The notes under the pieces were generated by a model that saw only the letters and a program-made list of their open reading frames with translations, was not told the origin of the DNA and did not search any database. Both the position numbers and the translations under genes were made by a program. Below, piece by piece: positions 1 to 31,364 of a DNA stretch of 64,000 nt (position 1 is the stretch's first letter; each line of letters begins with the position of its first letter). This DNA is from Thermoplasmata archaeon (GTDB taxonomy: Archaea > Thermoplasmatota > Thermoplasmata > Thermoplasmatales > Thermoplasmataceae), in the NCBI GenBank assembly GCA_021794355.1, contig JAJYRA010000034.1, positions 1 to 64,000 on the forward strand. Direction: 5' to 3'.

Positions 1-1
1 T

Positions 2-937
2 GTAAAGCTGATCATAGAACCCATATTCGAAACCGACTTCAAGAACAGCAGCTACGGTTACAGACCTAACAGGAACGCAAAACAGGCATCCCTTGAGATA
101 AGGAAATATCTCAACTACGGATGCACACAGATTGTGGACATGGATATATCATCCTTTTATGACAACATTGATCACAAAATAATGATCTCACTGGTGAAGA
201 AGAGGATAAGGGATAGTTATGTTCTTCACCTAATCAGGGAATGGCTCAGAGCTGGTGTTGTATACGAGGGTGAAACAACATACCCAACCCTTGGCACACC
301 GCAAGGAGGTGTGATATCACCACTTCTTGCGAACATATACCTGAATGAGGTCGACAGATTCTGGGAGGAAGAAGGCAAGTACACGGCAAAGAAATACAAT
401 GCCCATCTTATAAGATGGGCAGATGATATGGTCATACTTGCCGGAAGCAACCCAGAAGCAATCATGGCAATCATGAGGAATCTGCTTAAGAAACTCAAGC
501 TGTCCCTGAACGAGGAGAAGAGCAGAATTACCACAGCAAAAGAAGGCTTTGATTTCATCGGTTTTCACTTCTTTCGAAGACACATAACAAGGAAGGGAAA
601 AGAGGTCACAATACTCCAGCCCTCAAGGAAAGCGGTAAAGAACTTCAGGGAAAAGGCAAAACAGGTACTCAACAGGAAGAATCTTGCCATAAACGAAGAG
701 GACGCTGTGAGGAGACTTAACTACCTGATCACCGGTTGGACTAATTACTTTAATCACACAAATGCAGGCAGAATATACAATATATTGCAGAAATTCATCG
801 ACTGGCTGTTCTACAAATTCATTGCATACAGGCACAAGAAGAGGCACCTCTCCATATCCGACAATATCTATAACCGAATTTACCACAATAAACTCCGTCC
901 CCTTAAAGGCATAATCCGGTATAGCGCCCGTGCGTGA
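2..937 (+). CDS. ltrA: Group II intron reverse transcriptase/maturase (5' end outside window)
   Basis: Reverse transcriptase and maturase that splices its host intron and drives retrohoming. The reading frame is open from base 2, so the N-terminus lies before the window. Visible parts are the RT entry segment (IIEPIFE, then SYGYRPNRNA), the first catalytic Asp block (DMDISSFYDNIDH), the TPQGGVISPLLANIYL block, the active-site box written here WADD, and a C-terminal maturase (GIIM) region with the GWTNYFNH core. No HNH endonuclease domain follows; the protein ends after the maturase part. It is followed directly by intron RNA domains V and VI, which fixes its identity. Trp at the first position of the usual YADD box is unusual. 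Group II introns are mainly known from methanogens among archaea, so acquisition by transfer is likely (inference). Confidence 0.93.
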   Translation, partial: VKLIIEPIFETDFKNSSYGYRPNRNAKQASLEIRKYLNYGCTQIVDMDISSFYDNIDHKIMISLVKKRIRDSYVLHLIREWLRAGVVYEGETTYPTLGTPQGGVISPLLANIYLNEVDRFWEEEGKYTAKKYNAHLIRWADDMVILAGSNPEAIMAIMRNLLKKLKLSLNEEKSRITTAKEGFDFIGFHFFRRHITRKGKEVTILQPSRKAVKNFREKAKQVLNRKNLAINEEDAVRRLNYLITGWTNYFNHTNAGRIYNILQKFIDWLFYKFIAYRHKKRHLSISDNIYNRIYHNKLRPLKGIIRYSARA

Positions 938-948
938 AGTCACAAGGA

Positions 949-1021
949 GAGCCGTGTGACCGAAAAGGTCAAGCACGGTTCGAAGCGGAAGGGTCTGGAG
1001 TAATCCAGACTTTTACCCTAC
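949..1021 (+). ncRNA. Group II intron RNA domains V and VI and 3' splice end
   Basis: Catalytic 3' part of the intron RNA. Domain V occupies about 949-981: GAGCCGTG pairs with CACGGTTC, an inner helix TGACC/GGTCA is capped by a GAAAA loop, and a two-base AG bulge interrupts the 3' strand. The AGC catalytic triad lies in the first GAGCC. Domain VI follows as a hairpin (GTCTGGA/TCCAGAC, loop GTAA) with an unpaired TTTTA on its 3' side that could supply the branch-point A. The sequence then reads ACCCTAC, so the intron probably ends at the AC near 1020-1021. Domains I-IV lie upstream of the window or around the coding region. Confidence 0.88.
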
Positions 1022-29944: not shown

Positions 29945-30459
29945 ATGAGAGGCAACAACAAAAGAGTAATTGAATATTTGCAATATTTGGGTTTAGAGTA
30001 CGATATAGATGATTATGAATCTCGATTCGTAATCCAAAAGACTGTCTTTATATTGGTCTGCCCTTGTCGTATGAATTTGCTTTCTGGAAAGAGGGAACTT
30101 ATTCAAAAGAACTAGCGACCGACTACTATGGCAACAAAGAGAAATTCATTAGTAAAGATACCCAATTTACCCTTGATAACTATGAAAAAGAGATTCTTGA
30201 CAGGTATAGAAGTGTTATGGACTATGACAGAACTCTACTGGAGGCGGTTTCTACGGTATTATTTTTTGAATTGCAATATGAAAACTTGAATAATGTAATT
30301 GCAAAATTCAAAGAAGTAAAACCACACATTTCAGTGAGAGAGATCATGGTTGCACAAAACAAATCCAAAACGCTAAAATTTAAAAAGGAGTTCTTAACAC
30401 CGGAAATGAAGAGGGAAATCACCCTCTGGGAGTCTATAAATGACGGCTCAGTTCAATGA
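29945..30459 (+). pseudogene. YwgA-like protein gene broken by a frameshift
   Basis: From ATG 29945 the frame encodes MRGNNKRVIEYLQYLGLEY, then SRFVIQKTVFIL, and then runs to an early stop. The continuation GLPLSYEFAFWKEGTYSKELATDYY lies in the next frame up to 30459. Joined, they give the R-x2-QK-x-V-x-L and G-x-Y-S-x-EL pattern of YwgA-type proteins, whose exact role is unknown but which often sit near mobile genes. The join near 30050-30062 also lacks a few residues, so a small deletion is likely. Sequencing error is the alternative. Confidence 0.55.
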
Positions 30460-30464
30460 AGTTA

Positions 30465-30935
30465 AGTCAGGCGCCATAGTGCAGTCTATATCTCTATAAG
30501 ACCAGTTAGAGATAGGACTAACCTATGAAAGAACCTGAAATCATAGTAGCAAATCGGACATATCGGTTTAGTAATCATCGATGTGAAAGCTCCGAGGACA
30601 AAGCACCCGTGGGCGAAAGCTCAGGCCGTACAGGGGTGCGAGCAAGCAACCTGGCCACAACATTAAGTCAATTCTGCATCACCGTGATGGCCACCACACG
30701 AGCACGGTTCAAGTGGAGAATTAAGTGCGACGAGCCTTTTATTCCGTGGCGAACTCAGTACATTCAGGCAAGACGGGTATGTGCACCTGAATGGCACTTC
30801 TATGTAGGGGAAGTAGCAAGGTTGCAAGGTCTTATAGGCAAAGCATGGAGTATCCCGATTCCATCCAGAGCCAAGAAGGGAAAGGTATGTTTATCGCTTC
30901 TATGGACCATATTTTTAATCTTATGTAATGAAAGA
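30465..30935 (+). ncRNA. GC-rich candidate structured RNA
   Basis: A GC-rich island (63 % in 30601-30660 by count, against an AT-rich surround) with several hairpins: TATCTCTA/TAGAGATA near 30487-30512; CATATCG/CGATGTG near 30558-30584 (with G-T pairs); GCACCC/GGGGTGC enclosing GGGC-GAAA-GCTC with a tetraloop near 30604-30641; and a perfect CATTCAGG/CCTGAATG near 30762-30794. A frame of 154 codons runs through it (30525-30989), but its Trp/Cys-rich product is unlike a protein. I could not match it to RNase P RNA, SRP RNA, 5S rRNA or a complete group II intron domain V. Strand and ends are uncertain. Confidence 0.5.
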
Positions 30936-30944
30936 GCTATTAGA

Positions 30945-31364
30945 CTACATTTTTCTGGACTTCTGCTCCACATAAGGTGGTTTATATAAAATACTCATTG
31001 CACCACCAATGAGTACAAGAATAAATCCTATCAGGAGACCCCCCTCGCTTCCTGGAAGAGATAAAAGTGCCATGAGGACGCCCAATCCCCCCATGGATTT
31101 ACTCATACTCTCTTTAAAAAACATGACAAGAGAAGCTGAAATTTCTATTAAAGGGGGAATTATGCCGGTTCCAATTTCAATTAAAAGATTATTGGACTTG
31201 TTTATATTTCCGGTTATTACGGATAAATAAACAATAACAATCGATACGATCATTGTTACAATGGAACCAGCAAGCATTACCGTGGCAGCATCCCTATTCT
31301 GCCTGAAATATGAAAAAAATCTTGATAAAAATCTGCCTATCTTCCTGTTCCTTTCGCTGACCAT
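30945..31364 (-). CDS. Membrane protein of unknown function
   Basis: A 139-residue protein with a basic N-terminus (RFLSRFFSYFRQNR) and three to four membrane helices, the last ending in KPPYVEQKSRKM. It starts one base after the CobY-like gene stop (TAATATG), so it closes a three-gene operon with the PEBP and nucleotidyltransferase genes. No family recognised. Confidence 0.65.
   Translation of the reverse strand: MVSERNRKIGRFLSRFFSYFRQNRDAATVMLAGSIVTMIVSIVIVYLSVITGNINKSNNLLIEIGTGIIPPLIEISASLVMFFKESMSKSMGGLGVLMALLSLPGSEGGLLIGFILVLIGGAMSILYKPPYVEQKSRKM

What the first reader, a model, noticed from the sequence alone, without database searches (positions are those of the whole stretch)
30465..30935. 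GC-rich island with nested hairpins: possible undescribed structured RNA
In an AT-rich genome, 30601-30660 reaches 63 % GC by count and the region contains several perfect or wobble-extended stems, one capped by a GAAA tetraloop. It fails to match RNase P, SRP, 5S or group II domain V patterns that I know. It lies between a broken YwgA-like gene and an operon end, in mobile-element territory.
Basis: partly seen in the sequence, partly recalled or inferred. Interest (0 to 1): 0.62.

Follow-up and report, generated by a model that had tools for sequence, protein, structure and literature searches.

The report
Broken-off front half of mobile intron
The GC-rich patch is the first domain of a protein-less group II intron (a mobile, self-splicing type of RNA) whose other half is missing here; intact relatives form an archaeal lineage in which the catalytic core carries an extra base that the standard search model does not recognise.

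Summary
The "undescribed structured RNA" is the 5' part of a group II intron: window 30479-30849 (+), starting GUGCAG, contains all of domain I and stops just after its closing helix. Rfam RF02003 (group-II-D1D4-4) matches at 30503-30665 (51.5 bits). Intact relatives in the same genome and about ten related Thermoplasmatota genomes are about 805-890 nt, encode no reverse transcriptase, and end in domain V and a long domain VI with a bulged A. In domain I, 60 of 78 pairs show two-sided compensatory changes; the window copy keeps 75 of 78. Each copy's EBS1 and EBS2 loops pair with its own 5' flank (permutation p about 3e-4 and 5e-5), the group II mode of target recognition. Copies sit in tnpB genes (one with uninterrupted counterparts in the same genome) and inside other group II introns. 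Domain V is unusual: all 19 copies examined carry two nucleotides (mostly AA) opposite the G of the catalytic AGC triad where canonical domain V has one U, and Rfam's domain V model misses them. The window copy is a dead fragment. The lineage looks like an overlooked variant of a known kind, presumably mobilised in trans by resident intron reverse transcriptases.

The parts
30479..30849 (+). 5' fragment of an ORF-less group II intron: 5' terminus GUGCAG through domain I and 16 nt beyond
   Evidence: DNA matches to full copies begin at 30479 and end at 30845-30849; 75 of 78 consensus domain I pairs kept
30503..30665 (+). match to Rfam RF02003 group-II-D1D4-4
   Evidence: 51.5 bits, gathering score 49, E 1.9e-8 in the window search
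30498..30503 (+). 5' strand of the helix that closes domain I (partner 30828-30833)
   Evidence: helix 1 of alignment A2: 5 of 6 pairs with two-sided changes
30828..30833 (+). 3' strand of the helix that closes domain I; homology to the intron stops 16 nt later
30603..30639 (+).
   Evidence: helices 6 and 7 of A2: 9 of 11 pairs with two-sided changes
30740..30746 (+). EBS1 (TATTCCG), in the loop of the GAGCC...GGCGAA hairpin
   Evidence: column 282 of the element alignment; 5 of 7 pairs with this copy's own flank, 7 of 7 in six other copies; permutation p 3e-4 over all copies
30472..30478 (+). IBS1 (CGCCATA), last 7 nt of the 5' flank
30685..30688 (+). candidate EBS2 (TGAT); weak, 4 pairs with GTCA at 30466-30469
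   Evidence: family-wide EBS2-IBS2 signal p 5e-5, weak in this copy
29946..30459 (+). frame-broken gene ending 20 nt upstream of the intron fragment
   Evidence: in-frame stop after the ATG at 29946, continuation in another frame as ORF 30064-30459; no family above cut-off
1..1021 (+). 3' part of a separate, canonical RT-encoding group II intron (RT ORF, then domain V at 947-1021); not part of the fragment, but a candidate source of a trans-acting maturase/RT
   Evidence: RF00029 at 947-1021, 47.1 bits; RVT_1 at C24:5-571

Best explanation
The feature is the 5' remnant, essentially a complete domain I, of an ORF-less group II intron of about 820 nt. Intact members probably splice through a group II core whose domain V carries an extra nucleotide at the catalytic triad and whose domain VI has a bulged branch A. 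They insert into DNA where the last 7 nt of the 5' exon (IBS1), and more weakly an upstream IBS2, pair with the intron loops EBS1 and EBS2. They encode no protein, so they must use a reverse transcriptase/maturase supplied in trans, probably by the RT-encoding group II introns of the same genomes. The window copy lost everything after domain I and cannot splice or move. Shown: homology, boundaries, covariation, EBS/IBS matches, precise interruption of a tnpB gene. Inferred: splicing activity, trans mobilisation, death of the window copy.
For: RF02003 match. Related copies in the own genome and in relatives, full length about 805-890 nt without an RT ORF. Domain I: 95.2% of cells paired, 60 of 78 pairs with two-sided changes, against 33-38% paired in slid registers; the window copy keeps 75 of 78 pairs, 14 of them by compensatory change relative to C26. 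Domains V and VI: 88.8% paired, 25 of 36 pairs with two-sided changes, bulged A seven nt from the 3' end. EBS1-IBS1: own flank 5.57 of 7 against 2.89 for the flanks of other copies, permutation p 3e-4 over all columns; EBS2-IBS2 p 5e-5. tnpB: the joined exons of G031 give TRDLNAAINVLKDGLIKIGRSTPE|FTPVESATAAELLKGGLRVATL, and uninterrupted copies exist in the same genome (TnpB identity of a homologue). No domain V or VI of this lineage in the window. Resident group II RT/maturase on contig C89, TIGR04416.
Against: No RNA data, so splicing is not shown. The window copy's own EBS1-IBS1 pairing is only 5 of 7 and its EBS2-IBS2 4 pairs, so its original insertion is less clear than in intact copies. 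The RT introns examined in the close relatives mostly match a different domain I model (RF02005), so a trans role of their protein is a guess. The genome is a draft in 89 contigs.
Confidence: 0.93

Rival explanations
1. A stand-alone structured non-coding RNA (riboregulator or similar) that only descends from or resembles group II domain I.
For: Only domain I is left and it keeps 75 of 78 pairs; another own copy, C70, and copies in other genomes are also 5' fragments that end some way after domain I.
Against: The fragments end at different places (371, 400, 424, 428, 622, 657 nt). Full copies with domains V and VI and exon pairing exist, so the kept structure is explained by recent descent from active introns. 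No conserved neighbourhood was found.
Confidence: 0.04
2. A protein-coding gene of 154 codons (30525-30989), or a reading frame shared by the family (204 aa in C26, 252 aa in G092).
For: The frame starting MKEPEIIVANRT is open in several copies.
Against: No Pfam hit; changes even over the codon positions; the frame is broken in C81, G086, G015b and G116, and the window frame runs past the end of the element into unrelated sequence.
Confidence: 0.01
3. One half of a split (trans-splicing) intron whose domains V and VI are transcribed elsewhere, for example from the own-genome 3' fragment on contig C10.
For: Domain I is nearly intact, and a 3' fragment exists in the same genome (C10). Trans-splicing group II introns are known from organelles (review PMC4424553).
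Against: C10 has many broken domain V and VI pairs. No downstream exon is known, the gene upstream of the fragment is itself broken, and EBS1-IBS1 is imperfect.
Confidence: 0.02

Closest known systems
RT-encoding group II introns with domain I of type RF02003 (group-II-D1D4-4) in the same phylum (G303, G275, G334, G299, G136)
   Same: Domain I architecture and overall order of domains
   Different: They encode an RT and have a domain V of standard length (GG-UU or GG-AUU); this lineage encodes nothing and has GG-AA-U (AG or GA in two copies)
ORF-less group II introns of Thermosynechococcus elongatus (PMC2882425)
   Same: No ORF, good EBS/IBS pairing, several copies, nesting inside other introns, probable mobilisation by a driver protein in trans
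   Different: Those derive from a local ORF-containing intron by one deletion; here no ORF-containing relative with the same domain V was found
Nested group II introns (twintrons) of Methanosarcina acetivorans, as cited in PMC2882425
   Same: Archaeal host, introns inserted in introns
   Different: Different phylum; here the inner intron is the ORF-less lineage with the altered domain V
IStrons (group I intron with a DNA transposon; PMC4227781)
   Same: A self-splicing type of intron together with a transposon gene
   Different: Group II, not group I; the intron sits inside tnpB near its C-terminal end and was not seen fused to transposon ends

Membership tests
Group II intron (window fragment) | Domain I fold with EBS1 | tested here: met
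   RF02003 hit; 75 of 78 pairs; EBS1 at 30740-30746, though only 5 of 7 pairs with its flank
Group II intron (window fragment) | Domains V and VI present | tested here: not met
   The R1 model and BLAST find none next to the fragment: it is a fragment of an intron, not an intron
Group II intron (full-length relatives) | 5' GUGYG-like start and 3' AY end | tested here: met
   GUGCAG...GAC in nearly all copies; a few copies differ (C81 ends GAG, G104 ends GGT, G048 starts GATGCAG)
Group II intron (full-length relatives) | Domain V hairpin with AGC triad, two-nt bulge and GNRA-type loop | tested here: met
   8 of 13 domain V pairs with two-sided changes; loop GAAAU, two-nt bulge. Deviation: two nucleotides in place of the single U opposite the triad G
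Group II intron (full-length relatives) | Recognised by the Rfam domain V model RF00029 | tested here: not met
   No match at E < 1 in the loci searched nor up to E 10 in two focused searches, while canonical introns nearby are found. The model is a detection tool, not the definition
Group II intron (full-length relatives) | Domain VI with bulged branch A 7-8 nt from the 3' end | tested here: met
   Column 152 of A1 is an invariant A between paired columns 58-67 and 145-155; GAG/CUC becomes GUG/CAC in G022
Group II intron (full-length relatives) | EBS-IBS pairing with the own flank | tested here: met
Group II intron (full-length relatives) | Precise interruption of a gene with uninterrupted counterparts | tested here: met
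   tnpB in G031, with uninterrupted copies in the same genome
Group II intron (full-length relatives) | Splicing in vivo or in vitro | not testable with these tools
   No RNA data
Autonomous retromobile group II intron | Encodes an RT/maturase in domain IV | tested here: not met
   No RT ORF in any full copy; RT introns with canonical domain V lie elsewhere in the genome

The most novel reading that the evidence does not exclude
An old lineage of protein-less group II introns, found in distant families of Thermoplasmatota, has fixed an extra nucleotide at the G.U pair of the domain V catalytic triad and is still active and spreading. That would mean that the group II (and by analogy spliceosomal) active site tolerates a change at a position regarded as invariant, perhaps with a compensating partner or a specialised trans-acting maturase.
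Probability: 0.5. Interest if true: 0.72.

Novelty: new variant of a known kind. Interest (0 to 1): 0.5.

Why it matters
Surveys of group II introns look for the RT protein or for a canonical domain V. [quoted passage not shown] This lineage falls in that blind spot. If active, it offers a natural variant of one of the most conserved catalytic motifs in RNA splicing, and an archaeal case of protein-less introns that spread with borrowed enzymes.

Tried and rejected
Rfam with a relaxed threshold found no other family in the window region. The coding hypothesis for the 154-codon frame was rejected. A viral-contig scan with a domain V pattern gave one chance match inside what reads as a protein-coding stretch, with no R1 match; the 3'-end pattern gave none in viral contigs and four Thermoplasmata MAG contigs in genome contigs. 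A first EBS2 scan at fixed columns found nothing; a scan of the variable loop that allows variable spacing did. A tree of the domain I segment does not settle whether the two ORF-less groups share one origin (support 78/79). Simon et al. 2008 on ORF-less introns (PMC2525955) is not held.

Full report
What is there. The window lies in a draft genome of 2.05 Mb in 89 contigs (G000, contig C24). Its relatives that can be named are Thermoplasmata MAGs. BLAST against the own genome finds three other related copies, and each match starts at the base that corresponds to window 30479, GUGCAG.

Full relatives. Alignment of the copies shows an element of about 805-890 nt with sharp ends: 5' GUGCAGCCUG and 3' CUACUCGAC. 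Full or nearly full copies: own C26 and C81 (C81 with an internal partial repeat), G022, G031, G086, G092, G090, G116, G104, G015 (contig C83) and, in another family of the order, G048. None encodes an RT. A covariance model of the 3' end (R1) finds more in a distant family, f35 (G249, G360, G275, G261), of which G249 and G360 are also about 875 nt. The window copy matches up to 30849 and no further; neither R1 nor BLAST finds its 3' half (the only R1 hit in the window, at 935-1021, is the canonical RT intron).

Structure. In domain I the consensus fold of 16 copies has 78 pairs; 95.2% of cells pair, 60 pairs show two-sided changes, and all slid registers fall to 33-38%. The window copy forms 75 of 78, with 14 two-sided compensations relative to C26. 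The fragment ends 16 nt after the closing helix of domain I. In the 3' part, domains V and VI are supported by 25 of 36 pairs with two-sided changes. Domain VI has an invariant bulged A seven nt from the 3' end. The structures used were predicted from, or drawn on, these same alignments, so the percentage paired leans towards them; the two-sided changes are the safer measure.

The odd domain V. The lower stem, the two-nt bulge, the GAAA-type loop and the AGC triad are those of a normal domain V, but the 3' strand reads GG-AA-UY where canonical domain V reads GG-U-UC (canonical form from general knowledge and from the neighbouring introns aligned). The register is fixed by columns 20 and 54, which covary (A-U in 11, G-C in 3, no exception). 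All 19 copies with a domain V that I examined have two nucleotides here: AA in 17, AG in G031, GA in G104. Neighbouring introns with ordinary domain V, including the RT-encoding ones with the same domain I type in G303, G275, G299 and G136, do not; G303 and G299 have a single A there. RF00029 does not see the ORF-less copies at E < 1, nor in focused searches of two of them. That the altered core is active is inferred only from signs of continued mobility and constraint.

Target recognition. Scanning every alignment column, one place stands out as pairing with the last 7 nt of each copy's own 5' flank: a hairpin loop at column 282 (5.57 of 7 pairs, 2.89 with the flanks of other copies; highest value in 3000 permutations 4.86, p 3e-4). 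This is EBS1-IBS1. It is 7 of 7 in C81, G022, G031, G086, G116 and G015, and 5 of 7 in the window copy (30740-30746 with 30472-30478). A second loop pairs with positions -18 to -8 of the flank (p 5e-5), for example GGACCTT/AAGGTCC in G015. The loop was chosen after seeing the data, and the signal is weak in the window copy.

Where the copies sit. In G031 the joined flanks give an open TnpB C-terminus, and uninterrupted TnpB C-termini with the same junction occur in the same genome (TnpB identity of a homologue). G086, and less clearly G090, are at nearly the same place of tnpB. C26 appears nested in domain I of a canonical intron (its joined flanks match G023 across the junction), C81 lies inside domain VI of an RT-type intron, and a G015 copy is inserted in another copy of its own family. 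The window copy is 20 nt downstream of a frame-broken gene.

How it most likely works. Intact copies are introns that sit in mobile genes and in each other, splice by the group II pathway, and invade new DNA sites through EBS1 and EBS2. Lacking a protein, they must borrow a maturase/RT; the own genome has at least one nearly complete one (435 aa, open at the contig start, TIGR04416). The window copy has lost domains II to VI and is a dead remnant whose stems still look fresh. Shown: anatomy, covariation, exon pairing, precise insertion. Inferred: splicing, trans mobilisation.

Known or new. Group II introns in Thermoplasmatota are known (15% of genomes in PMC8919778), as are ORF-less and nested ones (PMC2882425; PMC4424553). 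What appears new, as far as this library shows, is a lineage with an altered partner of the catalytic triad in domain V that spans distant families of the phylum. I therefore file the window feature as a degenerate member of a new variant of a known kind.

Noticed in passing
window 1-1021: The contig starts inside an RT-encoding group II intron (RT domain, then canonical domain V at 947-1021). Several other contigs of this genome (C68, C63, C89, C60, C74) also begin or end in group II introns, so these introns seem to break the assembly.
   Followed up: partly
L011 444-1385 and 1451-2389 (own contig C81): Two neighbouring segments of about 945 bp, 81.5% identical, upstream of the nested intron copy.
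   Followed up: no
L168 2021-2145, L171 1511-1635: RT-encoding introns of G303 and G299 have A in place of the U opposite the triad G in domain V, possibly a step towards the two-nucleotide state.
   Followed up: partly
L109 2454-3123, L116 2248-2923: What look like other ORF-less group II introns, with domain I of type D1D4-6 and canonical domain V only about 360 nt further on, in G023 and G056.
   Followed up: partly
window 30479-30849; L012, L082, L030, L174, L179: Many partial copies keep the exact 5' end and lose the 3' part; 3' fragments seem fewer. Incomplete reverse transcription would give the opposite. The searches were biased towards the 5' end, so this is only a hint.
   Followed up: no
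G000:C10:9699-9846 (-), L135 1501-1648 (-): A decayed 3' fragment of the same lineage in the own genome, with many broken pairs.
   Followed up: partly
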